A DNA stretch of 47,536 nt from Desulfamplus sp. (lineage in GTDB: Bacteria > Desulfobacterota > Desulfobacteria > Desulfobacterales > Desulfobacteraceae), in assembly GCA_015232455.1 (NCBI GenBank), contig JADFZQ010000023.1:1-47536 (forward strand), in the 5' to 3' direction. This document shows positions 4,230-38,596 of this stretch, in pieces. The notes beneath the pieces were generated by a model. That model did not search any database, was not told the origin of the DNA, and was given only the letters and a program-made list of their open reading frames with translations. Positions within the stretch are counted from its first letter, which is position 1. Each line of letters begins with the position of its first letter. The position numbers and the translations under genes are program-made.

Positions 4230-5405
4230 TTATATTGATAGGATTGCTGGTTTAAGTGATAGATAATCAACTGTTCCAACGCCATTTGCTGAGGCTTGAA
4301 TAAGGTGAGGTAAATCTTGGTGGTTTTTTCCAAGAAGAGTTGCCCCAAAGCTATCAACTGCAACTGGGTCAGTTCCAACAATCAAGGTGTGAGTTGGCTT
4401 TAAATCAGAAAGAGATCCGCCTGTTGGACCATTAGTCATCATGGTGTTTGTTCCATCAAGAACAACTAATGTTGATTTTACCATTCTTGCAAGTTCAGTG
4501 ATAATGGTATGAATATCTTGATGAAAAATATTTCTACGTCCCCCAAGCAAACCATATCCATTTTTCAAAATCATTGATGCCCCACTCCTGTGGTGATCTT
4601 TTATTGGAGCCATACTGATGAGCTTTGTTACTCCATCAAATGGAGTTTTAAGAACTGGCCACTCTTTTATAAGGCGGCCATTTTCCAAAGTAAAATTCTC
4701 AAAATATTCATCTCTTGGTAAAATGAGATCAGCACCATTTTGTTTGGTTGCAGCCTCAATTCCTGTGAGAAGAAAACAGCTTGCAGGATCATTGATAGGG
4801 TTATCAGTTACTTTTACCTTTTTTGCCCCTGCGTTGTAGCAAATACGAATCATTTTTGAGAGAATATCGGGGTGTGTTGTTGCAGATAGAATTGGTGATA
4901 CTGCAAATGCGGCATTTACCTTTATTAAAACAACATCACCATCTTTAATAAATTTATCTATTCCGCCAAGAGCTTTTAATGCAGCATCAAGCGTTTTAGT
5001 TCTATCCTCACCCCTTACAATGGCAAGTTTTCCTGCTTGCTCAGGAATTGAAAAATCAGGAATAGTCCATATATCACTACTTTGAGTTGAGTTTGAATTA
5101 TCTTTGCTTAAATCTGAATTAATAGATTTTAAAGAGGTTACATGATCTGCATTAAGGTTGATAGAGCTTGTGGAACTCGCCTTTGGATCGTGGAATAGAT
5201 AACCAACAGCTCCTACAGATGCTACAGCCAATCCTGTCCTAATAGAACGAGATAAAAATTGCCTACGGTTTATATCTGTCTGATTTGAATTCTCATTACG
5301 GTTTATCTCTTTCTGATTTGCATTCTCATTTTTGCCTTGATCTGTTTTGCGTTGATCTGTTTTGCGTTGATCTATTTTACTTTGGTCGATTGTATCTCTT
5401 TTCAT
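4230..5405 (-). CDS. Tat-exported DUF362 family protein
   Basis: 391 residues. A twin-arginine signal lies at about residues 46-70 (NRRQFLSRS, then a hydrophobic AVASVGAVGYLF), so the protein is probably exported folded across the inner membrane. The mature part is a DUF362 domain (LAIVRGEDRTKTLDAAL, VLIKVNAAFAVSP, VKVTDNPINDP, and a C-terminal LIVGTDPVAVDSFGATLLG). DUF362 proteins are common in anaerobes, and their function is unknown to me. No ferredoxin cluster is present. The 45 residues before the RR motif are odd: repeats of DQ.K.DQRK and NQ.EINRNEN that extend the signal, and a later start could remove them. AAGGG precedes the ATG at 5405. It is 19 bp downstream of the DUF6599-like gene, so the two are probably cotranscribed. 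Confidence 0.85.
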   Translation of the reverse strand: MKRDTIDQSKIDQRKTDQRKTDQGKNENANQKEINRNENSNQTDINRRQFLSRSIRTGLAVASVGAVGYLFHDPKASSTSSINLNADHVTSLKSINSDLSKDNSNSTQSSDIWTIPDFSIPEQAGKLAIVRGEDRTKTLDAALKALGGIDKFIKDGDVVLIKVNAAFAVSPILSATTHPDILSKMIRICYNAGAKKVKVTDNPINDPASCFLLTGIEAATKQNGADLILPRDEYFENFTLENGRLIKEWPVLKTPFDGVTKLISMAPIKDHHRSGASMILKNGYGLLGGRRNIFHQDIHTIITELARMVKSTLVVLDGTNTMMTNGPTGGSLSDLKPTHTLIVGTDPVAVDSFGATLLGKNHQDLPHLIQASANGVGTVDYLSLKPAILSI

Positions 5406-5424
5406 CTTCTACAACCCTTGCTTT

Positions 5425-6822
5425 TTAGTTTTTATCTTCAGCTTTCTTGCTATCTTTGCTATCCTTGCTATTTAAAGCAATTTGGGCATAAAGCTGATTT
5501 GCAAGACTATTTGCTGTTTCTAAACTTTCTGTCTCTCTCACACCAGCAAGATACATTCCTGATGAAAATACAAACTCAAATGTATCCATAATTTCAACCC
5601 CATAGAAGGCTTTTTCTATTTTGGGATTAGTTAGCCCCTCTTTTGAATCAGTTGGACTATTTTTTGAATTAATTAAATGCTCCTTTAATTCAATCAGCTT
5701 ACCTCCAAAGTTTATAAGAAACTTTGAATATTCTTGTGCAAGAGTTGCTGCCTCCTCAATAGAGCCTCTCTTAGATATAAAGGCTGTAGCAGATATTCCA
5801 TTAAGTGTATAGTTTGCAGTATAAATATTATCAAACTTATCAAACCCAAAAGCATCTGAAGTTATGAGCGTTATACTTTCTTTATCAAGGATTAGAGAAT
5901 TTTTATCAATGGTTAAGCTATCTTTCTCAAGGTTTAGGCTCAAACTTTCTTTCTCAAGGTTTAGCCGTAAACTATCTTTATCTATTGCCTTAGTTGGAAA
6001 GAGATCAGGCACATCCATTTTTTTCGGTTCAAGATTTGGGTGATCGTTGATAAATGCTTTTGCTAAATTGATCATCGATTTAACGGCATCAGAAGAAGGA
6101 GATGATGCTATAATTTCTATATAAAAATGCCCATGAACAAAAAATAGGGCATTTTCTGTTTGATAGGAATATTGAGCTATTGAAGTTGAGGTTGAGTTTT
6201 CCCTTCTTTGACGGCTAAATACTGCAAAAGCGTTATCTGCAAGAGTCATATCATAAATAAAAACTTCAATCCATAAATCTGCATCAAAGCTAATTTTAGA
6301 AGAGTTATTTGAATCTAAAGATGTAGGAGCATTGTTAATTTCAAAAGAATTAGAGTCATTTTGAGCTAAATCATTAGCAGAAGCAAGGCTTGGATTTATT
6401 TTAAAACGTTGACACTTTAGGCTCTTAAAACCAGCAGGCAAATAGAGTTCTGCTTTGCCATCTATCTTATCTGAAAGAGTTATGCTATCAAACAATTCTG
6501 GAGCTGAAAGAGGTTCAAATGGGGTAATAAGTCTTATTATAGAGTTTAATTTCTTATCTACTACATCAGAATTAAGTTTAGTTTCTGATAGATTGACTTG
6601 TGGCTTAGTTGATAAATCATCTTGTAGTGTTGTTGTAATATCAACTTGAGTTGTAGATATAGAGGCAGGTGGCAAAACAGGTTTTGATGCAAGAATTTTT
6701 ACTGCTGGATTGAATTCAAATTGTCGATTAAATAGGACTATTGCAATAAAGATAAGAAGTGCAAGAATCGTCATACCTATTATCGAGGATTTAATAGAGG
6801 CTTTTGAATTTGCTTGAGACAT
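5425..6822 (-). CDS. DUF6599-like membrane-anchored protein
   Basis: 465 residues. One membrane helix at about residues 14-31 suggests an inner-membrane anchor with the bulk in the periplasm. The body has two similar modules, one with a D.WIEVFIYDM...AFAVFSRQR pattern (about 181-207) and one near FISKRGSIEEA...FGGKLIEL, as in proteins I know as DUF6599 in Desulfobacterota. That assignment is from memory of the pattern and is tentative. Residues about 281-319 are a degenerate repeat built on KDSL.LNLEK/LDKES. Residues about 143-178 and 365-390 are Ser/Asn-rich spacers. It starts a probable operon with the DUF362 gene. No catalytic motif was recognised. Confidence 0.65.
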   Translation of the reverse strand: MSQANSKASIKSSIIGMTILALLIFIAIVLFNRQFEFNPAVKILASKPVLPPASISTTQVDITTTLQDDLSTKPQVNLSETKLNSDVVDKKLNSIIRLITPFEPLSAPELFDSITLSDKIDGKAELYLPAGFKSLKCQRFKINPSLASANDLAQNDSNSFEINNAPTSLDSNNSSKISFDADLWIEVFIYDMTLADNAFAVFSRQRRENSTSTSIAQYSYQTENALFFVHGHFYIEIIASSPSSDAVKSMINLAKAFINDHPNLEPKKMDVPDLFPTKAIDKDSLRLNLEKESLSLNLEKDSLTIDKNSLILDKESITLITSDAFGFDKFDNIYTANYTLNGISATAFISKRGSIEEAATLAQEYSKFLINFGGKLIELKEHLINSKNSPTDSKEGLTNPKIEKAFYGVEIMDTFEFVFSSGMYLAGVRETESLETANSLANQLYAQIALNSKDSKDSKKAEDKN

Positions 6823-6930
6823 AAATAACTCCTTTAGTTATCTTTCATAAGCCACTCCAAACGGAGTTTAAGGAGGATTTTCAAGTTATTTATTAGAAGA
6901 AATAGTATATAGGAGGTCAAGGGTAGGAAG

Positions 6931-6961: not shown

Positions 6962-6982
6962 AAAATACGAATTCTGTCAAAA

Positions 6983-7296: not shown

Positions 7297-8124
7297 TTAA
7301 ATCTGCTCTCTTAGCCTCATTATGGTCTCTTTATAATTAGCGGTTTTAAATATTGCGGAACCTGCTACAAAAGATGTCGCTCCAGCAGAGGCAATTTTGG
7401 AAATAGTTTCAAAACCTATACCGCCATCAACCTGAATTATAGCCTTTGAATTTCGCTCTTTTATCATTTTTGAAAGTGCTTTTATCTTTTCAACGCTTGA
7501 CTCTATGAATTTTTGCCCGCCAAATCCTGGGTTTACGCTCATAACCAAAACAAAATCAACATCATTTATCACCCATTCGATAGCACTCAATGGCGTTGCT
7601 GGATTTAGGGCAACTCCAGCTTTTATATTAATCTTATCTTTTTGACTCTTCTCTTGTTTTTTCTCTTTATGCTCATTTCTATTTTTATCAAAATCTTTAT
7701 TGCTGCACTCTTTATCACTACTTTTATCACAATCTTTATTGCTGCACTCTTTATCACTATTTTTATCACAATCCTTATTATTACTACTCTTAGACCTTAA
7801 ACTCTCTAAAGATTTTATCAGTTGGATTGTTCTATGAAGATGGGTGCAGGCTTCTGCATGAACAGAGATAAGATCAGCACCAGCATTTGCAAATTCTGGT
7901 ATCATAAGGTCGGGCTTCTCAATCATCAAATGAACATCAAGAGTTAAAGATGTCGCTTTTTTACATGCCTCTACAATTATTGGACCATAAGAGATGTTAG
8001 GAACAAAGTGTCCGTCCATAACATCAATGTGTATCCAATCTGCCCCTGCTTTTTCCACATCATTTAGTTCCTGACCAAGTTTTGTGAAATCTGCTGATAA
8101 TATTGATGGTGCAATTATACCCAT
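7297..8124 (-). CDS. rpe: Ribulose-phosphate 3-epimerase with a repeat-derived insert
   Basis: 275 residues against about 220-225 for the family. TIM-barrel motifs are intact: [53 protein letters not shown]. The metal-site His and Asp residues are all present. It interconverts ribulose-5-P and xylulose-5-P in the pentose phosphate pathway. The extra length is one block at residues about 108-164 made of a 13-residue repeat ([13 protein letters not shown]-like) followed by a Lys/Glu-rich stretch. It falls between the HRTIQLIKS helix and the [11 protein letters not shown] strand, a surface position. The frame is open, so the enzyme is probably functional. It is probably cotranscribed with rsmB, 29 bp upstream. 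Confidence 0.95.
7682..7795. repeat. 39-bp tandem repeat inside rpe
   Basis: Units at 7682-7720 and 7721-7759 are nearly identical, and a third, degraded unit spans 7760-7795. The unit is 39 bp, 13 codons, so copy changes keep the frame. It encodes the Asp/Lys/Cys/Ser-rich insert of the epimerase. Confidence 0.9.
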
Positions 8125-8153
8125 TTTATCTATATTCTCCTTTTTAGCTTTCT

Positions 8154-9602
8154 CTAACTAACATTTCGTTTCATAATTGCAGCAAAAAATCCGTCCATTT
8201 CAATATGTTCGGGATATGTTTTAAAATAGCCATTATCTGGCACCATAGCACTATTAGAAAATTGTAATTGACTGCTTAAATAATAGCTCAAAGCTTGATT
8301 ACCCACAAAACTATGCTTTTTAAAATCAGGTCTCTGTTTTAAAAAATTATCAACAACATCTTCATTCTCTCTTTTTTCGCAAGAGCAGACAGCGTAAAGC
8401 AAAATTCCGCCATTTTTTACTAAATCTGCAACACTTAAAAGCATCTTCTCCTGCCTAATAGCAAGACGGGCTATATCTTTTTTATCACGCTTCCATTTTG
8501 CATCTGGATTACGTCTTAAAACCCCCATACCAGAACATGGTGCATCAACAAGAACGCGATCAAAAAGGGGCAAAGGCTGTTTTTCAGATAATGAGTCATT
8601 ATTATCTGAGAAGGTTGGCAAATTAGTTATAACGTCTGCTATTTCAGTTTTCAAAATATCTTTACAAAGAGTCTTTACAATATCAATACCAAGCCGATTC
8701 ATCTCTTTTTCAAGGCTTGCAAGTTTTTCAGAGTCAATATCACAAGCAACGACTAATCCTTTATTTTCCATAAGCTGTGCAATATGACCTGTTTTGCCTC
8801 CAAGACCAGCACAGGCATCAAGAATTTTCTCTCCTGAAAGAGGATTTAACATTAAAGTTACAAGTTGTGCTGCCTCATCTTGGACCTGAAAATAGCCTTT
8901 TTTAAAAGGTTCGCTCTCATGTATTGGAGTTGATGGTTTTGTAAAGTTTATACCATGCAGCGAATAGTTGGTTTTAGCAATATTATCAACATCAGATGAG
9001 TAAAGAGATACAAGAGATTCTCTATCAATTTTCAGGGTGTTTGTTCTTATTGTTATAGGCGGGATAGTGTTTATAGTATCACAAAGTTTTAATGTTTTAT
9101 CAAAACCATATTGGGCTATCCATTTTTTGACAAGCCACAAAGGCATGGATTGTGTAACTGATATGTAGCTATCAGGATTTGACTTTGAATCTGGAAGAGA
9201 AACAGAAGAAAAATTTATAGAAGCCTTCCTAAGAACCGCATTTACAAATCCAGCAACTCCTTGATGAGAGATTTTTTTCGCTAAATTTACAGCACTATTT
9301 ACAGCCGCAGAAACAGGAATTTTATCCATAAAAGCTATTTGAAATATGGCAATACGAAGTATGTAGATGATTTCAGTCTTTAGAGTCTCTAATTTTCTGT
9401 CTGAAAATGGCTGAATAACCCAATCAAGATATGCCTGCCATCTTAAAGTGCCATAAACAATTGCATTTGCAAGTGATCTGTCAAGTTTTGAAAGGGTGGC
9501 AAGTTGTGGTGAAAATTGGTCAAGTATGGTATCAAGAGGTCTTCTTGTTTGACTGTTTTCTGTTAAAATTAAAAGGGCGATGTAGCGGGGGTCATGTTCC
9601 AA
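8154..9602 (-). CDS. rsmB: 16S rRNA (cytosine967-C5)-methyltransferase
   Basis: 482 residues. An N-terminal NusB-like RNA-binding domain (about 1-150; [30 protein letters not shown]) is followed by a Rossmann methyltransferase. [27 protein letters not shown] (SAM site), [15 protein letters not shown] and [15 protein letters not shown] contain the two conserved cysteines of the m5C mechanism. It methylates C967 of 16S rRNA. The start is TTG at 9602 with GGAG ten bases upstream. A short Ser/Asn/Asp-rich insert ([12 protein letters not shown]) precedes the DAPC motif. It follows fmt on the same strand, with a 58-bp inverted-repeat element between them. Confidence 0.94.
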
Positions 9603-9637
9603 AATGGTTTAATCTCCATAAGTATGTTTTTTAATTA

Positions 9638-9706
9638 GAGTTCCTGCAAAACTTGAATTGACCCCTTAATTTTATTTGGATAGAAAATAGGTTTTGCAGG
9701 AGGTCA
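9638..9706. repeat. Intergenic inverted-repeat element, copy 1
   Basis: CCTGCAAAAC at 9643-9652 is the exact inverse of GTTTTGCAGG at 9691-9700. The interior (CCTTAATTTTATTTGGATAGA) and the flanks (TAGAGT before, GTCAA after) match a second copy at 41282-41346 in the same orientation. It lies between fmt and rsmB and codes for nothing. It resembles a small MITE- or REP-type element. Confidence 0.75.
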
Positions 9707-9711
9707 ATCAG

Positions 9712-10671
9712 TTAAAGAAAGCACTCTCCAGTGTCAAGACGATTTCCTCGAAGAAAATCATCAGAGCATAGACATTTGCCAGATTCACCCTGAAGTTGGA
9801 GAATAGCAATAGATCTGCTTCCAGCAGCTACTCTTATTTCACTACAATCGCATGAAAACAGAGTTCCAGCAGGCAGGTCAGTTTTTATATCCATAACTCT
9901 TACAGCCATAACCTTAATTCGCCGACCATTAAGAAATGTAAAAGCACCGGGCCAAGGTGTCATTGCCCGAACATGTGCAAAAATTTCTTCTGGTTCTTTA
10001 CACCAGTCAATCTTGCCGTCTTCTTTTTTTAACATTCGAGTATGAGTTGCTATTAAATGATCTTGTGGTTGAGGAGTAATTTTATCTTCTAACACAGCGT
10101 CAAGAGTCTTGACTATCAAATCTCCACCCATTTGTGCAAGCCTGTCATGTAGAGTTTGAGCTGTCTCGTCATCATTTATAGGGGTTGTCTCTTTAAGAAG
10201 AATATCACCTGTATCAAGCTCTGTATCCATAACCATTGTGGTTACGCCAGAAACTTTGTCCATATTCATAATAGCAGCTTGAATTGGAGATGAACCTCTG
10301 TATGCTGGTAAAAGAGAAGCGTGAATGTTGATTGGATAAATTGAAGGAATATCAAGAAGCTCTCTGCTTAATTTGTGTCCAAATGCAACTACCACAAAAA
10401 AATCAGGATTAAGTGCCAAAAGTTTCTCTTTAATATCAGAGCCTTTCATGGTTTCAGGCTGAAAAACCTCAAACCCAAGTTCTAATGCAGCCTGTTTAAC
10501 TGGTGGAGGCATCATTTTTTTGCCTCTTCCTTTTGGTCTGTCAGGCTGAGTAATCACAAGGCTGATTTTATATTTTTCGCCTCTTGGCAGGCTGTATTGA
10601 GCCAAAGCGTTTAAGGCTGGAACTGAAAATTCAGGCGTTCCCATAAATATTATATTAATTGGTCTGTTCAA
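9712..10671 (-). CDS. fmt: Methionyl-tRNA formyltransferase
   Basis: 319 residues, normal length. [15 protein letters not shown] opens the formyl-transferase fold. [19 protein letters not shown] holds the catalytic Asn-His and the SLLP.YRG.SP signature, and WPGAF.F marks the C-terminal domain. It formylates Met on initiator tRNA using 10-formyl-THF. The start is a TTG whose TTGA overlaps the def stop, so the two are translationally coupled as in most bacteria. The initiator tRNA substrate is also encoded in the window (33687-33763). Confidence 0.96.
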
Positions 10672-11339
10672 CTTTTAACCCTTTTTTTCATTTTTTTTTT
10701 ATACATATTACGTTTCAACATACTTATTCTATCGATATAGAGAACACCTTCAAGGTGATCAATCTCATGCTGAATAATAACTGCTTGTATATCTTCGGCA
10801 TCAAATTGAACCTTTTTGCCGTCAACATTTAATCCCCTTACAGTAATTTTGCTGAAACGTCTTACATCAGCAGAGTAATCTGGAACACTCAAACACGCCT
10901 CATTTTCAGATATTAGGGAACCAGACGCAGCTATAATCTCAGGGTTGATAATTGCTCTATATTCTTCTTTATGTTCGTTATCTTTTACAGATTTAGAATT
11001 TTTTGCAGAGCTTAAGTTATCTTCACTCTCTTCATTTGCAGAAATATATCCATCTTTTTCATCAATATCATAACCAGTTTGCCCAAAACCATCTTCATCT
11101 ATTTCATCACAATTATCATCATCTTCACTTCTTTTTTCATTGCCTGCATTTGGGTTATAAACAATAACTCTTTTATCGCTTCTAACTTGAGGTGCGGCAA
11201 GTCCAACGCCCGGGGCATTGAACATGGTATCTGCCATATCTTTTATAAGTTTTAATATCTCATCATCTATCTTTTCAACAGGCTTTGCTTTAAGAGTAAG
11301 AAATGGGTCTGGGTATTCAAGTATTTTTAATATTGTCAT
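10668..11339 (-). CDS. def: Peptide deformylase with a long acidic insert
   Basis: 223 residues against about 165-180 usual. All three metalloprotease motifs are present: GVGLAAPQV (about 44-52), [12 protein letters not shown] (metal-ligand Cys; Ala replaces the usual Gly of EGCLS) and QHEIDHLEG (about 190-198, metal His residues and catalytic Glu). The extra length is residues about 64-125, rich in Asp, Glu, Ser and Asn, between VIVYNP and YRAIINPEI, an edge loop of the fold. It removes formyl from nascent proteins. It overlaps fmt by 4 nt and is 35 bp from ribF. Activity is expected because the core is intact. Confidence 0.95.
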
Positions 11340-12656: not shown

Positions 12657-15600
12657 ATGCCAGAATCAAATAGCTATTCACAAACTACCAATAACTCACG
12701 AACAGCACCCAAATTTTACCATCTTCATGTTCACACAGAATACTCTCTGCTTGACGGTGCAATAAGGCTCGATCCACTTTTAAAACGGTGCAAAGAGTTT
12801 GGTATGGACGCTGTTGCAATGACAGATCACGGCACAATGTTTGGGGCAGCCCCTTTTAATGAAAAAGCTCTCAAAGCTGGAATAAAGCCTCTGATTGGTT
12901 GTGAAATGTATATTGCCCCTCGTTCACTAAAAGACAAGACAGCAGAGGATAAAAAAGGGCTTAACCATTTAGTTCTTATTGCAAAAGATAGAGAAGGTTA
13001 TTCAAATTTATGTAAATTAGCATCAATTGCCCAACTTGAGGGTTTTTACTATAAGCCAAGGATTGACAGGGAGACTTTGCCTAAATTTAGTAAAGGTCTT
13101 ATTGCTTTGTCTGCCTGTCTTAAAGGTGAAATACCCCAAAAAATACTTAAAGGGACTCAAGCTGACGTTGATGCCTCAGCACGCTATTACCTTAAAACTT
13201 TTGGCGAAGATAACTTTTTTCTTGAGGTGCAGCATAATGGAATTGATATTCAAGATAAAGTTAATCAAGGTATAGTCGAGTTAAGCGAACGGCTCTCAAT
13301 TCCAATGGTTGCAACAAACGATTGCCACTATTTATCAAAGGGTGATGTTCGGGCACATGAGGCACTTCTCTGTATCCAGACAAGCGATACAATAAATAAC
13401 AAGGCACGATTTAAGTTTGATTCTGATCAGCTCTATTTTAAATCTGCTGACGAAATGATCCGCGATCTTGGCAAATATAAAGGTGCAATTGAGAATAGTT
13501 GCAAGATTGTTGAGATGTGCAATGTTGAATTTGATAATAAAACCTACCATTTTCCAAGATACACTCTTCCAAAAGAAGAGATGGGTGGACAAAGTATTGA
13601 GCAGCTTGAAGGAAAAATTGAATGTAGTAACGAGAATATTGAACATGAGACAGTTGACCAGATATTTGATCGCCAAGTGAGAGAAGGATTTGAAAAACGT
13701 CTTGCTGTTATTAAAGAGAAAAATATAGGATTTAGTGAGCATGATGAAAAACTCTACAGAGACCGTCTTGACTATGAGATTGGCGTAATTCTCAATATGG
13801 GTTTTTCTGGATATTTCTTAATTGTTGCAGATTTTATTCGTTATGCAAAAGAGAACAATATACCAGTTGGTCCGGGTCGTGGTTCTGCTGCTGGAAGTAT
13901 GGTTGCTTACTCAATGGAGATCACAGCTTTAGACCCAATTGAGCATGGTCTTATTTTTGAGCGTTTCTTAAATCCTGCCCGTATTAGTATGCCTGATATT
14001 GATGTTGATTTTTGCATTGAAGGAAGAGATCAGGTCTATAAATATGTAATTGATAGGTATGGAGGCGGTCAATATGTCTCTCAAATTATCACTTTTGGAA
14101 AACTAAAAGCAAAGGCAGTTATCAGAGATGTTGGGCGTGCATTAGGTGTTCCTCTTCCAGAAGTTGATGAGATTGCCAAGATGGTGCCAGAAGGTCCTAA
14201 AGTAACCTTACAGCAGGCTCTTGATGATGTTCCAGAAATACTTGAAAAGGCAAGTGAAAGCCCCGTAAAGCAGGAGATGATTGATATATCGCTTCTACTT
14301 GAAGGTCTGCCGCGGCACGCATCAACTCATGCTGCTGGAGTTGTGATTTCAGATAAACCACTTGTAGAGTATCTGCCGCTTTATCGAGGTAAAGAGGGCG
14401 AGGTTGTAACCCAATTTGATATGAACTATGTTGAAAAATTGGGTCTTGTAAAGTTTGATTTTTTAGGGCTTCGTAACTTAACTGTTATTAAGAACACCAT
14501 TGAGCTTATCAAAAAATCAGCGGCAAACGATCCTTCAAACTCTATAAAAATTCCTGACCTTTTAAATTTAGATTTAGAAGATAAAGCCACTTATCAGCTT
14601 CTTTCAAAAGCAGATACAACTGGTGTGTTTCAGCTTGAAAGTTCGGGAATGAAAGAGCTTATTTCAAGGCTGCTGCCAGCCTCTTTCAGCGATATTGTTG
14701 CTCTTGTTGCTCTCTATCGACCAGGTCCGCTTGATAGCGGTATGGCAGACTCTTATGTTGAGCGAAAACATGGTCGCGAAAAAGTTGAGTATCTGTTTCC
14801 AGAGCTTGAGCCAATTTTAAAAGAGACTTATGGTGTAATCCTCTATCAAGAGCAGGTTATGAAGATTGCAAGCGTTCTTGCAAACTACTCAATGGCTGAT
14901 GCAGATGGTTTGCGAAAAGCTATGGGAAAAAAGATAGCCTCAATGATGGACGAGCATAGAGGACTTTTCCTTAAAGGTGCAAAAGAGAACAAGCTGTCTG
15001 AAAAAAAAGCATCAGAGCTTTTTGATCTTATGGAGAAATTTGGAGGATATGGATTTAATAAGTCTCACAGTGCTGCTTATGCTTTAATCTGTTTTCAGAC
15101 CGCATATTTAAAAGCTCATTATCCGCGTGAATATATGGCTGCTTTAATGAGCAGTGAAATGAGCAACTCTGAGAGTGTTGTAAAATTTATTGATGAGTGC
15201 AAAAGCCATGCAATTAAAGTTTTGCCGCCTGATATAAACGAGAGTGATGCAGGATTTACAGTAACTTCTGATGCCATAAGGTTTGGCATGGCAGCGGTTA
15301 AAAATGTTGGATCTGCTGCCATTGACTCTATTATTGAAGCAAGAGGTGAAGGTGGAAAGTTTAAATCTATTTATGATTTTTGCGAGCGGGTAAATCTTAG
15401 TAAAGTCAATAAAAGGGTTATTGAAGCTCTTATAAAGTGTGGTGCTTTTGACTCAACTGGTGCAAAGAGAAGCCAGTTGATGAAGGTTGTAGAGAGTGCT
15501 TTAGATCATGGCAACAGGATACAGAAAGAGAAAGATGACTCTCAAATGGATCTTTTTTCATCTATGGACGGTAAATCGTCAGCCCCCATAACCATTCCTA

Positions 15601-17720: not shown

Positions 17721-19465
17721 TGGTGAACATTTTTGTAGAGCCGATTCAGTTAACTATTGATATAAAAAGTGGCGAAACTATCCATGATGGATTAGAAAGA
17801 GCTGGCATAAATATTGAGACACCTTGTGGTGGTAATGGTATCTGTGGATGTTGTCGCGTTTTGGCAATTGAGCCTTCCAAGATTCCACCAACGCCACATG
17901 AAACTATCACAGCTCAAGAGGCATCAAAAGGGGTTAGGCTTGCCTGTATTGCATATCCAGAATCTGATACAACAATCAAACTTGAGACAGCATATCTGTA
18001 CGATAGGGGAAATAATGACAAACAGGATAATGGGCAAAAAATTCTCTCTGTTGGTCTATTAGAGAAGTCCAACGGCAATTCCAATTTAGATAACAAATTT
18101 AATTGGAGTTGCAATTTAGATGACAAATTTAATCCAAATTTGAATAGCCCAACTAAAGTTAATCTTCATGGTATAGATAATCAAAAAGCTCTTGGTCTTG
18201 CTGTTGACATTGGCACTACAACGCTTGTTATTGCTATTGTTTCCCTCATCAATATGAAAATTTTGGCATCTGCTTCAAGCCTAAATCCTCAGGTTGTTCA
18301 CGGACATGATGTTTTAAGTAGAATTAATTACTCATCAACTCCTACCGGACTTGCTAAAATGTCTAAGCTAATTAGAGATAAGCTAAATGAGTTAATTGGA
18401 GAGGTTTGCGAAAGTATTGAATCAAAAAGAGATCAAATTGTTGATGTTGTTATAGGAGCTAATACAACTATGCTTCAAATTGCAGCTTCAATTGATCCAA
18501 CACCACTTGGTCATCTTCCATTTAAAGCAGATATTGCAGGGGCAACCACATTTCCGATAGATCAATTTGGACTTAACGTAAACAAATATGCAAGTGTATA
18601 TTTGCCACCAGTGCTTCATGCGTTTGTTGGTTCAGATATTAGTGCTGGTCTTCTTAGATGCCCTGAATTTTTTGATGATCATAAATCAGTTCTCTATATT
18701 GATATGGGGACAAATGGTGAACTCTGTCTAAATGTAAAGGGTCGTCGATTTGCGACTTCAACCGCTGCTGGACCTGCATTTGAAGGAATGGGCATCTCAA
18801 GCGGAATGAGAGCAACTAATGGTGCTGTGGAGAGAGTAGAGGTAATAGATAATAAGATTATATTTCACGTAATTGGTTCAAACCCTACTGATATAAAGAA
18901 GATAAAAGGTATTTGTGGGAGTGGAGTTATTGATTTGATTGCAGCACTTTTAACAACACAATATTTAGACAAATCAGGTAAATTAGAACTGCTTACATTA
19001 TCGGAAAGCGAAGAGCCTCAAAGCAGTCTATCGCTTGAAAATAAAATACCTGAAATAGTTAAAATAGAGTCTCAGACAGCATTTTGTTACGGAGAGAATA
19101 TATATCTAACCCAAAAAGATATTCGTCAGATTCAATTAGCAAAAGGTGCTGTCAGAACTGGAATAGACCTTATCCTTCAGAAGGGGGGAATAACTTGTGA
19201 AATGGTTGATAAGGTTTATATTGCAGGAGGATTTGGTAACTTCTTAAATCCTAAAAATATGGAAAAAATAGGTCTTTTGCCAGAAAATTGTGCTAAAAAA
19301 GTAATTTTTTGCGGTAATGCCTGTATTGATGGGAGTATTATGCTTTTAACAAATATTAATGTTCGTGTTTTTCTTGAGTCTGCTTTGAACGATATAGAGC
19401 ATCTTCAGCTTGCGGATTCACCTGAATTTATGAACTGCTTTGTAAAGAATCTCAATTTTAGCTAA
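17720..19465 (+). CDS. RACo-like ferredoxin/ASKHA protein (corrinoid reductive activase family, DUF4445)
   Basis: 581 residues. An N-terminal plant-type [2Fe-2S] domain has Cys36, Cys42, Cys45 and Cys76 (TPCGGNGICGCCRV and RLACIAYP). From about 155 the large domain begins LGLAVDIGTTTLVIAIVSL, an ASKHA-type phosphate loop, and continues with YIDMGTNGELCLN, SAAGPAFEGMGISSGMRA-like core motifs, IKGICGSGVIDL and a closing FCGNACIDGSIM. Characterised relatives reductively reactivate Co(II) corrinoid proteins or methyltransferases with ATP. The partner here is unknown: no corrinoid protein or metH is in the window. Residues about 115-145 are an Asn-rich linker made of two 10-residue repeats. It overlaps djlA by 1 nt. 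Confidence 0.85.
   Translation: MVNIFVEPIQLTIDIKSGETIHDGLERAGINIETPCGGNGICGCCRVLAIEPSKIPPTPHETITAQEASKGVRLACIAYPESDTTIKLETAYLYDRGNNDKQDNGQKILSVGLLEKSNGNSNLDNKFNWSCNLDDKFNPNLNSPTKVNLHGIDNQKALGLAVDIGTTTLVIAIVSLINMKILASASSLNPQVVHGHDVLSRINYSSTPTGLAKMSKLIRDKLNELIGEVCESIESKRDQIVDVVIGANTTMLQIAASIDPTPLGHLPFKADIAGATTFPIDQFGLNVNKYASVYLPPVLHAFVGSDISAGLLRCPEFFDDHKSVLYIDMGTNGELCLNVKGRRFATSTAAGPAFEGMGISSGMRATNGAVERVEVIDNKIIFHVIGSNPTDIKKIKGICGSGVIDLIAALLTTQYLDKSGKLELLTLSESEEPQSSLSLENKIPEIVKIESQTAFCYGENIYLTQKDIRQIQLAKGAVRTGIDLILQKGGITCEMVDKVYIAGGFGNFLNPKNMEKIGLLPENCAKKVIFCGNACIDGSIMLLTNINVRVFLESALNDIEHLQLADSPEFMNCFVKNLNFS
18080..18133. repeat. 30-bp tandem duplication in the RACo-like gene linker
   Basis: Positions 18080-18103 and 18110-18133 share CAATTTAGAT.ACAAATTTAAT at a 30-bp period, ten codons. 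They encode the repeated NLDNKFN/NLDDKFN in the linker between the ferredoxin and ASKHA domains. Confidence 0.8.
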
Positions 19466-19506: not shown

Positions 19507-20364
19507 ATGCACCGATTTTATATAAATCCAGATGATATTCAAGGTAACAATGCTACTATTATTGGTCAAGATGCTAAACATCTTGTGAATGTTCTAAGAC
19601 TTGTATCTGGCAACATTGTTGAACTTGTAGATGGAGTTGGAACACACTATTTATCTGAAATTGACTTTGCAACCTCTAAAAAGGTAGTTTTAAGAATTAT
19701 AGAGAAGAGTTTTTTAAAAGCAGAGTCTCCAGCACATATTACAATTGCACAAGGAGTGCTTAAAGATAATAAAATGGACGTAATCTTGCGTCATCTTACC
19801 GAGCTTGGGATTAAAGAGTGGATACCTTTTTTTGCATCACGCTCAGTTCCATCTCCTAATACTAACAAAATAAGAACTGATTTAATTATTCCTAAATCAA
19901 AATTTAGCAATAAAACAAAGAGGGAAACGATAAATAGTAATATTGAAATCTCAAACGTAAATCCTAAAATAAAAGATGTTAGAGTTGAGAGGTGGGAACG
20001 AATTGCAAGAGAGTCAATAAAACAGTGCGGACGAAGTCTTATACCCATTATTCATAAACCTGTCTCTTATGATGAGATGTTAAATAAAACAAACTCTTAT
20101 GGAGAAAAAATAATTTTTTGGGAAAATGCCACAATACCAATTGATGTAATAAGAGAACGTCAAGAGAGAGTGGAGAAAAATAGAATTATCGTTATGATTG
20201 GACCTGAAGGTGGATTTTCTGAGCAAGAGGTAGATATTGCAAAAGAGCATGGGTTTGAAGCTTTTTCTCTTGGTACTCGGATTTTAAGAGCTGAGACAGC
20301 ATCTATTGTGGCATCTACATTAATTCAAAATATATTTGGTGATCTTGGAAACAAAGATAGTTAG
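19507..20364 (+). CDS. rsmE: 16S rRNA (uracil1498-N3)-methyltransferase, copy 1
   Basis: 285 residues from the ATG at 19507 (MHRFYINPDD is the normal RsmE beginning; a TTG at 19489 would add six residues). The PUA-like N-domain has QDAKHLVNVLRL. The SPOUT domain has LRHLTELGIKEWIPFFASRSV, a linker, VERWERIARESIKQCGRS, then MIGPEGGFSEQEVDIA and LGTRILRAETASIVAS, which form the trefoil-knot SAM site. It methylates U1498 of 16S rRNA. A basic/Asn-rich insert of about 45 residues lies between SRSVPS and VERWERI. A second RsmE paralogue is at 26547-27278. No clear Shine-Dalgarno precedes the start. It follows the RACo-like gene. Confidence 0.92.
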   Translation: MHRFYINPDDIQGNNATIIGQDAKHLVNVLRLVSGNIVELVDGVGTHYLSEIDFATSKKVVLRIIEKSFLKAESPAHITIAQGVLKDNKMDVILRHLTELGIKEWIPFFASRSVPSPNTNKIRTDLIIPKSKFSNKTKRETINSNIEISNVNPKIKDVRVERWERIARESIKQCGRSLIPIIHKPVSYDEMLNKTNSYGEKIIFWENATIPIDVIRERQERVEKNRIIVMIGPEGGFSEQEVDIAKEHGFEAFSLGTRILRAETASIVASTLIQNIFGDLGNKDS

Positions 20365-20712: not shown

Positions 20713-21070
20713 GGGGGCGAAACGGCTTCGACGGAGACGACGAGGTTTTGGTAGCATGTCGAGCTTTCTATTGACTCGTAAAATCAATGGAAACTAAAGA
20801 TAATCGCAGACGATTATAACTACGCTGTAGCCGCTTAAAGCAGCTACCGTCCTGCTGAAATTTATCCTGTAGATTTCAGTTAAAGGGCGTCGACTATACG
20901 GGAAAGCTTGATACAGTTGTCTGAGCTGTATGAGGTTAAATTTATCAGGCTATTCTGATATGTATCTTGCCTGAAAGAGACTATCAGCAAAATTTAAAGT
21001 TCGGGATAAACATGTAGAAGCCACTGCTAAATCTCTTCGGACGCGGGTTCAACTCCCGCCGCCTCCACCA
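20713..21070 (+). ncRNA. ssrA: Transfer-messenger RNA (tmRNA)
   Basis: About 358 nt. The 5' end GGGGGCG-AAACGGCTTCGACGG is the conserved tmRNA start, and the 3' end GGTTCAACTCCCGCCGCCTCC-ACCA forms the T-arm and acceptor; GGGGGCG pairs with CGCCTCC. The tag reading frame resumes at GCA 20806-20808 and reads ADDYNYAVAA, ending at TAA 20836-20838. The AVAA end is typical of protease-targeting tags. The RNA rescues stalled ribosomes together with SmpB, which is not in the window. Confidence 0.97.
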
Positions 21071-24409: not shown

Positions 24410-25405
24410 ATGCAGACAGAAAACAACCTTTCAGATAGATGGACAATTCTTAAAATTATCTCATGGACAACTAACTATTTCAAAGAATTTGATATTGATA
24501 GCCCAAGACTAACCGCTGAGATTCTCCTTTGCCATGCATTAAATATCCGCAGAATTGATCTTTATCTTCAATTTGACCGTCCATTAAATAGTGATGAACT
24601 CGCCCAATATAAGTCTTTGATTAGGAGAAGGCTGAAAAAAGAGCCTGTTGCTTACATTACAGGCAGCAAAGGCTTCTGGGATTCACAATTTATTGTAACT
24701 CCTGATGTGCTAATCCCCAGACCAGATACTGAGTTAATAGTTGAAGTTGCTCTTAATTTAATTAAACAAAAAAAAAATGAGCGTCAGAACAAAGTTGAGC
24801 AATATAGCAAAATAGAGCAAAATATTATAGAGTGTAATGAAAAGATTGAAAAACACAACAAGAGCTTGGATCAACATATTAATATATTAGAGCTTGGAAC
24901 AGGCTCTGGTGCTATTTCCATCTCGCTTGCAAAAGAGAATCAGAACTCTTCTGATATAATTTTTTTTGCAACCGATATCTCTTTAAAAGCTGCTATAATT
25001 GCAAAAAAAAATAGCCTTAATGCGATTATGAAGCCCTCCCAAAATCTCTTTTTTCTCATTGGCTCGTGGTTTTCACCTATAAAACCAGAAGCAAAGTTTG
25101 ACATCATTATCTCAAATCCTCCATACATTCCAACCAATGACATTAAGACTCTTCAAGAGGAGGTTCGTGATTATGAACCTCTTTTAGCTTTAGATGGAGG
25201 ATCAGATGGAATTTCATCTTTAAAAGAGATTATGAGATCAGCACACCATTATCTTACGCAAGATGGTATTCTTTTAATGGAGATGGGTTTTGATCAAAAA
25301 GAGAAGATTGAGCTTGAGGCTTTAAAAATTTGTAAGTATGAGCCACCTATTTTTATAAAAGATTATGCGGGGCATAATCGTGTAGTATCTTTAAAAAAAA
25401 TATAG
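24410..25405 (+). CDS. prmC: Release factor glutamine methyltransferase
   Basis: 331 residues against about 275-290 usual. The N-terminal helical domain has SPRLTAEILLCHAL and KKEPVAYITGSKGFW. The catalytic part has ILELGTGSGAISISLA (SAM loop) and SNPPYI (NPPY at about 236-239), the HemK-family active site. It methylates the Gln of GGQ in RF1 and RF2. Residues about 119-157, between EVALNLI and the SAM loop, are a Lys/Asn/Gln/Glu-rich insert with a repeated EQ.SKIEQN pattern. A1-type homopolymer runs occur in its DNA. It follows prfA. Confidence 0.94.
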   Translation: MQTENNLSDRWTILKIISWTTNYFKEFDIDSPRLTAEILLCHALNIRRIDLYLQFDRPLNSDELAQYKSLIRRRLKKEPVAYITGSKGFWDSQFIVTPDVLIPRPDTELIVEVALNLIKQKKNERQNKVEQYSKIEQNIIECNEKIEKHNKSLDQHINILELGTGSGAISISLAKENQNSSDIIFFATDISLKAAIIAKKNSLNAIMKPSQNLFFLIGSWFSPIKPEAKFDIIISNPPYIPTNDIKTLQEEVRDYEPLLALDGGSDGISSLKEIMRSAHHYLTQDGILLMEMGFDQKEKIELEALKICKYEPPIFIKDYAGHNRVVSLKKI

Positions 25406-29178: not shown

Positions 29179-29712
29179 TTACTGAGCTATAACATAGCGA
29201 TTATTGTCATCTTTTTGAATTTTTTTGCTATTTCTTAATCTATAAACAATATCTGCTATCTTTTTTGAATCAAATCCAGTCTCTTTTTTTAAATCTTCAA
29301 CACTAATACCGCCCCTTTTTTTGATAATATTAAAAACTGCTTCTGTAGCGTTCTTCTTTTTCTTACTGCTGACGCTATTATTTTTAGAGATTGGCTTAGT
29401 AGCTTTGACACTTTTAGATTTTATTGGCTCTACCTTTTTAGGTTCATTGCTTAGATTATCACTCTTTACAGTAAGATCATCAGCTTTAACAGGTGCAGAA
29501 TCACTCTTTACATTAGCATCATCAGATTTCGCAGATGCAGAATCACTCTTTACATTAGCATCATCAGATTTCACAGATTCTGAATCATTTTTAGTGCTAA
29601 ATTTTTCCAAAATCTCAATAAAACCACCGATATTTTCTGCAACTTTATTTATAGCATTCTGAATAAATTCTTGGGATTCTTTGTTTAGCTCAATTGCGAT
29701 CTCTATTTTCAT
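29179..29712 (-). CDS. Small protein with repeat linker and C-terminal winged helix
   Basis: 177 residues, not recognised as a named family. The N-terminal about 40 residues are a helical segment (ELNKESQEFIQNAINKVAEN). Residues about 41-115 are low complexity: DDANVKSDSA repeats then Lys/Ser-rich. The last about 55 residues (ATEAVFNIIKKRGGISVEDL, KKETGFDSKKIADIVYRLRN) are a winged-helix DNA-binding domain with a GGISVEDL-type turn. AAGGAG lies 11 bases before the ATG. The 42-bp DNA repeat at 29495-29578 underlies the linker. It is probably cotranscribed with the Fe-S protein gene downstream, which suggests a joint redox-linked role; that is inference. Confidence 0.6.
   Translation of the reverse strand: MKIEIAIELNKESQEFIQNAINKVAENIGGFIEILEKFSTKNDSESVKSDDANVKSDSASAKSDDANVKSDSAPVKADDLTVKSDNLSNEPKKVEPIKSKSVKATKPISKNNSVSSKKKKNATEAVFNIIKKRGGISVEDLKKETGFDSKKIADIVYRLRNSKKIQKDDNNRYVIAQ
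29495..29578. repeat. 42-bp tandem repeat in the HTH protein linker
   Basis: Units at 29495-29536 and 29537-29578 are nearly identical (14 codons each), with partial units on both sides. They encode SDDANVKSDSA.-type repeats, and the period is a multiple of three. Confidence 0.88.
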
Positions 29713-29733: not shown

Positions 29734-31053
29734 TTAGTATTTAATATTATCTACCTTGCTTATCTCTCTATCACGCATACCAATTAGATATAAAAGTCCA
29801 TCAAGCCCAACATTTGAAATATTGCTTTCAGCCTTTTCCCTGACAAGCGGTTTGGCATTATAAGCAACGCCAAGACCTGCAATTGTTATCATTGGCAGAT
29901 CGTTTGCACCATCGCCAACCGCAATTGTCTGTTCAATGGATATATTCTCTTTTAATGCAATTTCCCTAAGTAGCTGGGCTTTTCTCTCCCCATCAATTAT
30001 CTCACCTGTAACTTCTCCTGTAACCTCTCCATTGGCTATCTCAAGCTCATTTGCATAAAGATAGTCAAAATTGAGCTTCTCTTTTAAGTAGTTACCAACA
30101 AAAGTAAACCCACCTGAAAGAATCCCAAGTTTATAACCAAGCTCCTTAAGCGTTTTTGTTACAAGTTCCACGCCTTCTGACAGAGGAAGAATCTGTGCAA
30201 GATTTTCCAATTGATTTGCCTTTAACCCTTTAAGCAAGGCAACCCTTTTACGAAAACTCTCCTTAAAATCGATCTCACCTCTCATAGCAGACTCAGTGAT
30301 TGCAGCAACTTTATCTCCAACACCTGCCATCTTTGCAAGTTCGTTAATAACTTCAGCTTGAATAAGGGTTGAATCCATATCAAACACAACAAGTTTTCTG
30401 TTTTTACTGTAGATATTATCAATGTGAAATGAAATATCAATACCAGTATCTTGGGATATTTTCATAAAATCTCCCCTCATAGACTTTATGCTGCATGGTT
30501 TACCACTTACTGAAAGCTGAATACATGCTCTTGAAGGCGGCACTGTTTTGAGGTTGTTATTTTCACATTTACCTATATCTTCTTTGCTTATATCTGCATT
30601 ATTTCTTACGCTATCATCTTTATTAATATTTTTTTTATCTAATGAGATACGACCAGTAAGACGTGAGATATTATCAATATTTAAATTGTTCTCGGCAATT
30701 ACTGAAGTAACTTTTGCTATCTGGTAGGCTGTTATCTTTTTACCCAAAAGAGTTATTATCCGCCTCTCCTGTCTCTGAGAGCTAACCCATTTTTCATAAT
30801 CTTCTTTTTTAACAGATTGAATATCAATATGCAGTGAGAGTTTATAACCTTCAAAAAGCATATCCTTGAATATTGCTGGAAAATCGCTCTCAACAGGAAT
30901 CTCTACAAGGATACCAAGTAAAATATTTTCATGGATTACAGATTGCCCAATATCAAGGATATTAACATTGTATTGGGCAAGAATACTTGTAAAACGGCAG
31001 TTTATCCCTTTTCTATCTTTTCCGCTGATATTTATCAATACGATTTCACTCAT
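29734..31053 (-). CDS. serB: Phosphoserine phosphatase with N-terminal ACT domains
   Basis: 439 residues. Two ACT-like domains fill about 1-215 (IVLINISGKDRKGINCRFTS at the start). The HAD phosphatase follows: DMDSTLI at 225-231 (nucleophile Asp), ILSGGFTFVG and AVGDGANDLPMITIAG at about 378-393. It dephosphorylates phosphoserine in serine synthesis, with ACT domains for amino-acid control. Residues about 136-170, inside the second ACT region, are an Asn/Asp/Lys-rich insert. GEVTGEVTGE (342-351) is a short duplication. ThrH at 33934-34533 is a second enzyme able to dephosphorylate phosphoserine. It lies in the minus-strand run with the PNP and cmoA genes. Confidence 0.94.
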   Translation of the reverse strand: MSEIVLINISGKDRKGINCRFTSILAQYNVNILDIGQSVIHENILLGILVEIPVESDFPAIFKDMLFEGYKLSLHIDIQSVKKEDYEKWVSSQRQERRIITLLGKKITAYQIAKVTSVIAENNLNIDNISRLTGRISLDKKNINKDDSVRNNADISKEDIGKCENNNLKTVPPSRACIQLSVSGKPCSIKSMRGDFMKISQDTGIDISFHIDNIYSKNRKLVVFDMDSTLIQAEVINELAKMAGVGDKVAAITESAMRGEIDFKESFRKRVALLKGLKANQLENLAQILPLSEGVELVTKTLKELGYKLGILSGGFTFVGNYLKEKLNFDYLYANELEIANGEVTGEVTGEIIDGERKAQLLREIALKENISIEQTIAVGDGANDLPMITIAGLGVAYNAKPLVREKAESNISNVGLDGLLYLIGMRDREISKVDNIKY

Positions 31054-33763: not shown

Positions 33764-33774
33764 ATATCTTTAGC

Positions 33775-33803: not shown

Positions 33804-33933
33804 GACAATTCTGAGAATAAATGCAAAATCTCTATTACTACCAATAAAGCACTCTTTTGCTTTGATTTATACTTTAAGCGGGCAGAACTCAATTTATGAT
33901 CTTGAACAGTAAAAAATAACATTGTGCGTATAG

Positions 33934-34533: not shown

Positions 34534-34575
34534 TATTATTTTCCTTAAAAATTAAGCGGTTTCTTTGCGAATAAA

Positions 34576-34605
34576 TGCAGGGTTTAACTATGGTTAAACC
34601 CTGCA
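34576..34605 (-). terminator. Perfect hairpin between hom and thrH
   Basis: TGCAGGGTTTAAC at 34576-34588 is the exact inverse of GTTAAACCCTGCA at 34593-34605 with a 4-base loop. On the minus strand the tail is ATTTATTCG, a weak U-tract, so it may attenuate, not fully stop, hom-thrH transcription. Its GGGTTTAAC core matches the tRNA-Phe terminator. Confidence 0.6.
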
Positions 34606-34638
34606 AATTATGACATTGCTGGTATAATTAACCATAAT

Positions 34639-37278: not shown

Positions 37279-37378
37279 CTTGGTATTCGAGAAACTTCTT
37301 TATTTAAATCCTCTTTCTTATACCACACATTATCTCTTGGACAGCACATTACCTATAGAATTATAGAATACAACCATA

Positions 37379-38596
37379 ATGATTATACTTGGCATTGAAT
37401 CTTCGTGTGATGAAACAGCAGCAGCAGTTGTTGAGGATGGTAACATTATACGTTCTTCTGTAGTCTCATCACAAATTGCTGTGCATCATAAATATGGTGG
37501 GGTTGTACCTGAGCTTGCATCTCGAATGCACATTGAGTCAATTATCCCTGTTGTTATGAATGCTATTGAATTGGCAGGTATATCCATAGATCAAATTCAA
37601 GGAGTTGCGGCAACAAGAGGACCAGGATTAATAGGGGCTTTATTAGTAGGATTTTCTTTTGCAAAATCATTTGCGTGGGCAAAGAGTATCCCTTTAGCAG
37701 GTGTAAACCATCTTGAAGGTCATATATACTCTGTTCTTTTGTCAGATGACCCTCCCAAGTTTCCATTTGTAATTCTTCTTGCTTCAGGCGGTCATACTAA
37801 TCTTTATTATGTAGAATCATATAATGAGTTTGAGCTGATGGGTCAAACAAGAGATGATGCTGCTGGTGAGGCGTTTGATAAGGTTGCTAAAATGCTTGGA
37901 CTTGGTTATCCGGGAGGAGCTGTTATTGAAAAATTAGCTGAAAAAGGCGATCCTTTCTCTATATCTTTTCCAAAATCATATCTTGAAAAAGATAGCTTTG
38001 ATTTTAGTTTCAGCGGTCTTAAATCTTCAGTTGCAAGATATATCACTGAACATACTAATTGTAGTAAAATGTTGAGTGGTGATATTAGCCGCAATCAAAA
38101 TAATAACAGTAATCAAGACAATAATAATATTGGTTTAATAGACATTAATGATCCAAATATAAGTGCCAACATTGCCGCATCTTTTCAAGAGTCTATTATA
38201 GAGGTTTTGGCTCAAAAATTAATTAGTGCTGCATTGAGCAGAAGCGTTAAACATATTGCTGTAGCTGGTGGTGTTGCTGCAAACTCTGCTCTAAAAAGGA
38301 AGATTATATCACTTATCAATTCGTCAGATTCACTATTGAATAACTATCTTAAATTACCAGATTCTTTAAGCAGATCAAGCAACTCTTTAGCATCAAACAG
38401 CTCAATCAGAGCTAAAGATTTAAAATTACACCTGCCACCCCTTGCCCTATGCGGCGATAATGCCGCAATGATAGCTGCAAGAGGCTGCATGCTAATTAAA
38501 GATGGAAAATTATGCAATCTTGATAGTGATGTCTTTTCTCGCACAAAGCTCTCAGTTATAGATAAAGCTATGGCGAGAAATGAAGTTAAAACCTAA
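37379..38596 (+). CDS. tsaD: tRNA N6-adenosine threonylcarbamoyltransferase, with two inserts
   Basis: 405 residues against about 335-340 usual. Core motifs are intact: ILGIESSCDETAAAVV, GGVVPELASRMHIE, NHLEGH (His111, His115, metal ligands), LLASGGHTNLYYV, DDAAGEAFDKVAKMLGLGYPGG, FSFSGLKSSV, AVAGGVAANSAL and CGDNAAMIA. With TsaB and TsaE it transfers threonylcarbamoyl to A37 of ANN-decoding tRNAs. Inserts of Asn/Asp/Ser-rich sequence occupy about 225-258 (SRNQNNNSNQDNNN) and 315-346 (SSDSLLNNYLKLPDSLSRSS). The second lies between the SALKRKI helix and the LHLPPLALCGDN strand. It is probably functional because all ligands remain. It is convergent with asnS. Confidence 0.95.
   Translation: MIILGIESSCDETAAAVVEDGNIIRSSVVSSQIAVHHKYGGVVPELASRMHIESIIPVVMNAIELAGISIDQIQGVAATRGPGLIGALLVGFSFAKSFAWAKSIPLAGVNHLEGHIYSVLLSDDPPKFPFVILLASGGHTNLYYVESYNEFELMGQTRDDAAGEAFDKVAKMLGLGYPGGAVIEKLAEKGDPFSISFPKSYLEKDSFDFSFSGLKSSVARYITEHTNCSKMLSGDISRNQNNNSNQDNNNIGLIDINDPNISANIAASFQESIIEVLAQKLISAALSRSVKHIAVAGGVAANSALKRKIISLINSSDSLLNNYLKLPDSLSRSSNSLASNSSIRAKDLKLHLPPLALCGDNAAMIAARGCMLIKDGKLCNLDSDVFSRTKLSVIDKAMARNEVKT

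What the first reader, a model, noticed from the sequence alone, without database searches (positions are those of the whole stretch)
5270..38410. Repeat-derived low-complexity inserts scattered through housekeeping enzymes
At least ten conserved proteins carry hydrophilic Asn/Ser/Asp/Lys/Glu-rich inserts at positions between core motifs: Rpe (about 108-164), Def (64-125), TsaD (225-258, 315-346), PrmC (119-157), SerB (136-170), RsmE copy 1, the RACo-like linker, DnaE (about 305-338), RsmB, the DUF6599-like protein and the DUF362 leader. Several are in-frame tandem repeats (30, 39, 42 bp). Neighbours such as Rho, RF1, PurM, AsnS and L28 have none. Active-site motifs are kept everywhere. This looks like a genome-wide process that inserts or expands short repeats in surface loops, as known in AT-rich eukaryotic parasites but rarely noted for bacterial core enzymes.
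Basis: partly seen in the sequence, partly recalled or inferred. Interest (0 to 1): 0.7.

Follow-up and report, generated by a model that had tools for sequence, protein, structure and literature searches.

The report
Swollen surface loops in Desulfamplus enzymes
In the bacterial genus Desulfamplus, many everyday enzymes carry extra, probably floppy, water-loving loops that related genera lack; they grow and shrink partly by in-frame copying of short DNA pieces and differ even between sister species, a free-living bacterial parallel to the padded proteins of malaria parasites.

Summary
The window comes from a Desulfamplus genome. Loop lengths that are nearly fixed in other genera of the order are inflated here: TsaD site 2 is 21 aa in 15 of 15 other genomes but 23-68 aa in 8 of 8 Desulfamplus; Rpe 6-12 aa in 21 others against 6-75 aa in 9. 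The sites are shared across the genus but the sequences turn over fast. Sister species G005 (99% identical in the Rpe N-half) has no Rpe insert, most simply a loss. The inserts are hydrophilic in frame, predicted disordered in Rpe and Def, and less constrained than the core (dN/dS 0.40-0.46 against 0.13-0.21). A tandem-repeat signal is seen in 16 of 53 inserts and 12 of 21 coding indels against G005, though not in every pair; inverted repeats and other copies are at chance. Best account: recurrent in-frame tandem duplication and deletion in tolerant surface loops, not mobile elements or assembly error. AT-rich relatives are normal at the sites measured. Why this genus does it (mutation bias or weak selection) is open. 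DnaE is a weak case, and AsnS varies elsewhere in the genus.

The parts
7630..7806 (-). Rpe insert, residues 107-165, between a helix and the next strand; 39-bp tandem array at 7679-7779
10959..11144 (-). Def (peptide deformylase) insert, residues 66-127
38057..38158 (+). TsaD insert 1, residues 227-260
38324..38419 (+). TsaD insert 2, residues 316-347
24770..24874 (+). PrmC insert, residues 121-155, before the methyltransferase domain match
30529..30639 (-). SerB insert, residues 139-175, after the second ACT match (100-132) and before the HAD match (222-388)
19861..19977 (+). RsmE copy 1 insert, residues 125-163
18005..18190 (+). RACo-like linker, residues 96-157; one more 30-bp unit in G005
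8571..8633 (-). RsmB insert, residues 324-344; absent in G005 and G006, a different sequence in G004
13572..13652 (+). DnaE variable segment, residues 306-332; weakest case
5875..5982 (-). DUF6599 protein, 27-bp tandem array region, residues 281-316
5271..5405 (-). DUF362 protein leader, residues 1-45, 15/30/33-bp tandem units
29368..29589 (-). 177-aa protein (no Pfam match), hydrophilic middle with 42-bp tandem array

Best explanation
Since the origin of Desulfamplus, short in-frame tandem duplications, followed by point mutation, further copying and deletion, have inflated exposed loops and linkers of many core proteins. The added stretches are translated, hydrophilic and probably disordered; selection keeps them in frame, soluble and away from the catalytic core but not in sequence or length, so they can be lost outright. 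Shown: restriction to the genus at the sites measured, fixed sites, fast turnover, triplet length, composition, relaxed constraint, tandem signature in part of the cases, at least one clean absence nested in the tree. Inferred: that inserts without visible repeats began the same way, that they are translated and disordered in the cell, and that tolerance rather than a special enzyme drives it.
For: Loop lengths in 14-21 other genomes against 8-9 Desulfamplus genomes. Same sites, unalignable sequences. Tandem signature p<=0.05 in 16 of 53 inserts (about 2.7 expected), 15 of 16 with an offset divisible by 3. G000-G005 coding indels of 6 bp or more: 21 of 21 divisible by 3 and 12 of 21 tandem-like, against 12 of 29 and 3 of 29 in non-coding DNA, Fisher p=0.00055. 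Protein indels of 3 aa or more per aa substitution: 18/928 (G000-G005), 18/996 (G000-G006) and 8/518 (G003-G008) against 1/1013 in the control pair G015-G023, p=2e-5, 7e-5 and 0.001. In-frame NSDKE content 53% against 24-27% in the other two sense frames. dN/dS 0.46 and 0.40 in inserts, 0.21 and 0.13 in the same genes' cores. Predicted disorder: most of Def 69-123 and Rpe 111-161 have pLDDT below 50. No Rpe insert in nested G005. The G002 TsaD insert is a 24-bp array running into the native sequence beside it.
Against: 37 of 53 inserts show no significant internal repeat, and the largest differences between close species (Rpe, RsmB, Def) are not plain tandem copies. In G000-G006 the tandem share of coding indels (7 of 22) does not differ from non-coding (6 of 29), p=0.52, and one of the 22 is not a triplet; in G003-G008 it is 2 of 5 against 0 of 12, p=0.07, and 0 of 8 by the protein-level test. 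Against the AT-rich pair G012-G022 (7 gene pairs, 3 indels) the excess is not significant (p=0.22-0.54). Array density in G001 is high in non-coding DNA too, so mutation bias is not excluded. Bulky hydrophobic residues are as rare in one other frame (19.8%) as in frame (20.6%). The lack of stops in the inserts is partly by construction, because only ORFs spanning both anchors were taken.
Confidence: 0.77

Rival explanations
1. The inserts are functional disordered regions (regulation, scaffolding, condensates) kept by selection for composition and length range.
For: In-frame hydrophilic bias and dN/dS below 1. A disordered insert in Bacteroides Rho is reported to drive phase separation (PMC10284900, a commentary, whole text read).
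Against: The Rpe insert is absent in G005, the RsmB insert in G005 and G006, and G009 is within 2 aa of the outgroup median at four of five sites; lengths vary severalfold and no motif is conserved through the genus.
Confidence: 0.12
2. Mobile palindromic elements inserted in frame, as Rickettsia palindromic elements do.
For: The genome holds dispersed intergenic repeats (9636-9707 has 37 further places listed); the RsmB insert contains a short palindrome (p=0.05).
Against: 14 window inserts have 0 hits at E<=1e-3 and 120 at E<=1 elsewhere in the window plus a 400-kb sample, against a mean of 110.6 (80-134) for codon-shuffled copies. Inverted repeats reach p<=0.05 in 4 of 53 inserts, as chance. 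Own-genome searches list no copies of the inserts, though only 40 of 213-218 candidates were scored.
Confidence: 0.03
3. A raised tandem-duplication mutation rate in the genus, in coding and non-coding DNA alike, is the cause, rather than relaxed selection.
For: In G001 array density is about threefold that of G023 in both coding and non-coding DNA.
Against: G013 has about as many non-coding arrays per kb as G001 but normal loops; in G000-G005 the tandem excess is in coding DNA only; MutS and MutL are present, though other repair genes were not looked at.
Confidence: 0.25
4. Assembly or binning artefacts.
For: The same-genus genomes are drafts of 82-550 contigs.
Against: The same sites are inflated in up to eight separate genomes, and Def also in the isolate record NZ_LT828543.1; frames are kept.
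Confidence: 0.01

Closest known systems
Low-complexity inserts in Plasmodium falciparum proteins (character recalled; only search listings seen, e.g. PMC2705789)
   Same: Asn/Lys/Asp/Ser/Glu-rich, hydrophilic, in loops of conserved enzymes, fast turnover, core kept
   Different: Free-living bacterium; G+C 34-47% in single loci rather than extreme AT; units of 12-57 bp in the sample
Rickettsia palindromic elements in protein genes (PMC2229807, passages read; Ogata et al. 2000 not read)
   Same: In-frame peptide inserts in bacterial genes (recalled)
   Different: No family of related copies and no excess of inverted repeats here
Variable disordered insert of bacterial Rho (PMC10284900)
   Same: Disordered, compositionally biased insert of variable length in a conserved protein, sometimes with tandem repeats
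   Different: One protein there; many unrelated proteins here, while Rho itself shows no variable site in six Desulfamplus genomes

Membership tests
Rickettsia-type palindromic coding elements | Many related copies dispersed in the genome | tested here: not met
   capped lists; 447 kb of 4.35 Mb
Rickettsia-type palindromic coding elements | Inverted repeats / stem-loop in the insert | tested here: not met
   4 of 53 at p<=0.05
Tandem-repeat (slippage) expansions in coding sequence | Adjacent repeated units whose number differs between close relatives | tested here: met
   RACo 30 bp, DUF6599 27 bp and DUF362 15 bp units differ in number between G000, G005 and G006
Tandem-repeat (slippage) expansions in coding sequence | Every insert carries a repeat | tested here: not met
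   16 of 53 significant
Plasmodium-like low-complexity inserts | Hydrophilic inserts in loops of conserved enzymes, absent from relatives | tested here: met
Plasmodium-like low-complexity inserts | Extreme AT-rich genome | tested here: not met
   Desulfamplus loci 34-47% G+C
Inteins or self-splicing introns | Splicing domains or intron structure | tested here: not met
   No intron among 5 Rfam matches at gathering scores; no intein domain in Pfam scans of 17 window proteins at E<=0.001
Inteins or self-splicing introns | Insert absent from the mature product | not testable with these tools
   Needs RNA or protein data

The most novel reading that the evidence does not exclude
Desulfamplus is under a genome-wide, coding-directed regime of loop inflation and deflation: in-frame duplications are made or kept across the proteome, giving many core enzymes species-specific disordered loops, and one lineage (G009) has gone back to within 2 aa of the ancestral length at four of five sites measured (not at Rpe or Def), as if the regime can be switched off. 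The loops together may have a cell-level role, such as solubility or condensate behaviour.
Probability: 0.12. Interest if true: 0.85.

Novelty: new variant of a known kind. Interest (0 to 1): 0.6.

Why it matters
Core enzymes of free-living bacteria are usually thought of as streamlined. A genus in which TsaD, Rpe, Def, PrmC, SerB and, in the genome sample, proteins matching RpoD, DnaG, HemC and ArgJ carry lineage-specific, quickly changing stretches offers a natural experiment: same sites, up to nine genomes, gains and losses. It lets one ask whether mutation bias or weak selection pads proteins, a long-standing question from malaria parasites, in a genus with a named isolate. It also warns annotators and modellers that such length differences need not mean broken or wrong genes.

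Tried and rejected
Mobile palindromic elements: rejected. Loss of mismatch repair: MutS and MutL are both present in G000. AT-richness alone: G012 and G013 have normal loops at the sites found, but the AT-rich pair G012-G022 is too small to compare indel rates. The DNA-level control pairs were small (6.5 and 6.3 kb of coding DNA: 5 and 4 coding indels, of which 1 and 4 are triplets and 0 and 1 tandem-like), so I relied on the protein-level comparison, whose main control has 19 gene pairs. One search includes remote pairs (30-45% identity): inserts of 10 aa or more, G000 versus G013 31 and 12 in 33 pairs, G000 versus G023 17 and 6 in 24, G001 versus G013 14 and 5 in 24, G001 versus G023 10 and 5 in 13, control G013 versus G023 9 and 5 in 40, G000 versus G001 23 and 22 in 34. 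Rows left out: TsaD site 2 and the DUF362 leader did not enter the repeat test (the TsaD2 anchor found nothing); inserts under 22 aa and other-genus rows were left out; native-length PrmC site 2 loops are among the 53. In one search Rpe was measured in the 30 of 37 matching genomes for which one search gave a locus; 31 of 36 window genes tested, 21 with a site varying by 8 aa or more; ABC is a paralogue and gCA has only an N-terminal site, so 19 of 30 is the safer count; part of these sites vary in other genomes, not in the window. In some searches I entered the D. magnetovallimortis locus (L033) as G001 and L034 as G002 without proof; one search found no overlapping DNA to test that, and with them apart or left out the placing of G000, G005, G006, G004 and G009 is the same. 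Literature: nine searches listed no title or abstract reporting this in Desulfamplus; the 19 papers were seen as listings only, and subscription papers are mostly not held. PMC1925122 (abstract seen) reports more indels in essential than in other proteins of three model species.
Full report
WHAT THE WINDOW IS. The window is contig C15 of a 4.35-Mb draft genome, 98.5% complete. Its closest named relatives are Desulfamplus records, including the isolate D. magnetovallimortis. Nine same-genus genomes came back (G001-G009). G+C of single loci in the genus runs from 34 to 47%.

THE OBSERVATION. Pfam splits Rpe and Def into two stretches around the insert. Against the best solved structures, Rpe has 58 residues between two neighbouring residues of the template; TsaD has 40 and 39 residues where the template has 8 and 9; PrmC has 35 where it has 1 (counts between local alignment ends). 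The in-frame arrays of 15/30/33, 27, 39 and 42 bp are found by TRF.

GENUS RESTRICTION. Residues between fixed anchors were counted. TsaD site 1: 13-17 in 15 other genera, 15-59 in 8 Desulfamplus. TsaD site 2: 21 in 15 of 15 others, 23-68 in 8. PrmC site 1: 18-24 in 14 others, 22-51 in 8 (G002 not placed). PrmC site 2: 24-25 in 14, 23-61 in 9 (near normal, 27, in G000 itself). Rpe: 6-12 in 21 genomes of 19 other genera, 6-75 in 9. Def: 16-20 in 4 other genera, 31-72 in 7 Desulfamplus. The 29% G+C relative G013 is normal at Rpe and both TsaD sites (its PrmC was not found), and the 34% relative G012 at all five sites, while G002 (47%) is inflated at Rpe and TsaD. So AT-richness alone does not explain the inserts.

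FAST TURNOVER AT FIXED SITES. Within the genus the sites coincide but the insert sequences mostly cannot be aligned, although cores are mostly 60-97% identical. The tree is ((((G000,G005)97,G006)100,(G004,G009)90),((G003,G008),G007)),(G001,G002) (G005 has 2404 of 6595 columns; same placing). G005, sister of the window's species, has no Rpe insert. G004, G006, G008 and G009 share an RYK edge in theirs, so the gap in G005 is most simply a loss that restored the ancestral length. G009 is within 2 aa of the outgroup median at four of five sites and shorter than its sister G004 at five of five, though its Rpe (+14) and Def (31 aa) loops stay longer than in other genera.

LOCAL ORIGIN. In 16 of 53 inserts of 22 aa or more the best internal direct repeat beats codon-shuffled copies at p<=0.05 (about 2.7 expected; 12 at the floor of 0.005), 15 of 16 with an offset divisible by 3; inverted repeats do so in 4 of 53. 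Different species have different units at one site: Rpe 39 bp in the window, 24 bp in G002; Def 21 bp in L034, 18 bp in G008. In 41 kb of coding DNA aligned between G000 and G005, 21 of 21 indels of 6 bp or more are triplets and 12 are tandem-like; in non-coding DNA 12 of 29 and 3 of 29 (p=0.00055). For G000-G006 the figures are 21 of 22 and 7 of 22 against 11 of 29 and 6 of 29, and the tandem share does not differ (p=0.52); for G003-G008 5 of 5 and 2 of 5 against 3 of 12 and 0 of 12 (p=0.07). In the protein-level version 7 of 18, 4 of 18 and 0 of 8 indels are tandem-like in these three pairs. The largest differences (Rpe, RsmB, Def) are not simple tandem copies. The inserts have no more matches in a 447-kb sample of the genome than shuffled copies do.

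GENOME-WIDE. In 400 kb of the same genome 41 in-ORF arrays were found in 32 of 296 ORFs, all with triplet period; G001 had 43 (40 triplet), the 29% G+C relative G013 36 (16 triplet), G023 14 (12 triplet). By my division this is about 12, 12, 5 and 4 triplet arrays per 100 kb of coding DNA. ORFs were called mechanically, and some arrays lie in repeat or very long proteins rather than core enzymes. Non-coding array density was 36, 67, 62 and 21 per 100 kb, so it does not single out the genus. Sampled proteins with inserts of 10 aa or more relative to G013 or G023 include matches to RpoD, DnaG, HemC, ArgJ, uroporphyrinogen-III methyltransferase, MazG, an acyl-CoA ligase and NIF3. Protein indels of 3 aa or more per amino-acid substitution: 18/928, 18/996 and 8/518 in three Desulfamplus pairs, 1/1013 in the control pair G015-G023 and 3/345 in the small AT-rich pair G012-G022. 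The excess is clear against the first control and not significant against the second.

TRANSLATED, DISORDERED, TOLERATED. In frame the inserts are 53% NSDKE and 21% bulky hydrophobic; the proteome sample has 32% and 36%; the other two sense frames have 24% and 27% NSDKE, but one of them is just as poor in bulky hydrophobic residues. That the inserts hold no stop is partly by construction, since ORFs spanning both anchors were taken; the triplet rule above is the better sign of translation. dN/dS against G005 and G006 is 0.46 and 0.40 in the alignable parts of inserts, 0.21 and 0.13 in the same genes' cores, 0.085 and 0.108 in other genes (alignment in inserts is less certain). AlphaFold models give pLDDT below 50 over most of Def 69-123 and over Rpe 111-161, and mostly 70 or more elsewhere; the Def model matches solved deformylases. 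The Rpe insert lies between a helix and the following strand, which in this barrel fold is the side away from the active site (general knowledge). None of this proves translation or disorder in the cell.

MECHANISM AND CAUSE. Best reading: short in-frame duplications arise, are tolerated in exposed loops, then diverge, grow again or are deleted. Loss of mismatch repair is not the reason, since MutS and MutL are present. Whether the genus makes more duplications or merely purges fewer is open. A shared function of the loops is possible, but the absences argue against a need for them.

NOVELTY. The nearest kinds are malaria-type low-complexity inserts and Rickettsia's in-frame palindromic elements; the first is a match in character, the second failed two tests here. 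Nine literature searches listed no account of this for Desulfamplus. I rate it a new variant of a known kind.

Noticed in passing
window 9636-9707: About 75-bp intergenic repeat between fmt and rsmB with 37 further places listed in the genome (capped list) and more in G005 and G006; function unknown.
   Followed up: no
window 34566-34629: Intergenic dispersed repeat with ten other places listed in G000.
   Followed up: no
window 38619-38663 and 33866-33918: Two short dispersed repeats: the first with matches at about five places in G005, the second at five places in G000.
   Followed up: no
window 20713-21070: tmRNA gene; G004 has two strong matches to it on different contigs.
   Followed up: partly
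G009 loci L061, L062, L064, L066, L179, L203: G009 is within 2 aa of the outgroup median at four of five measured sites although it branches beside inflated G004; possibly a lineage-wide deflation.
   Followed up: partly
MutL matches: MutL open frames are 655-786 aa in 9 of 10 Desulfamplus (G009: 634). Full-length ones in other genera run from 601 to 736 aa, most under 645, so its linker may be inflated too.
   Followed up: no
window 10671-11339: The Def motif usually written EGCLS (recalled) reads EACLS in the window, in the Desulfamplus rows and in G010 and G016.
   Followed up: no
L095 13178-16009: Repeat protein with 18 copies of a 15-bp unit; probably an ordinary pentapeptide-repeat protein, counted among the 41 arrays.
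   Followed up: no
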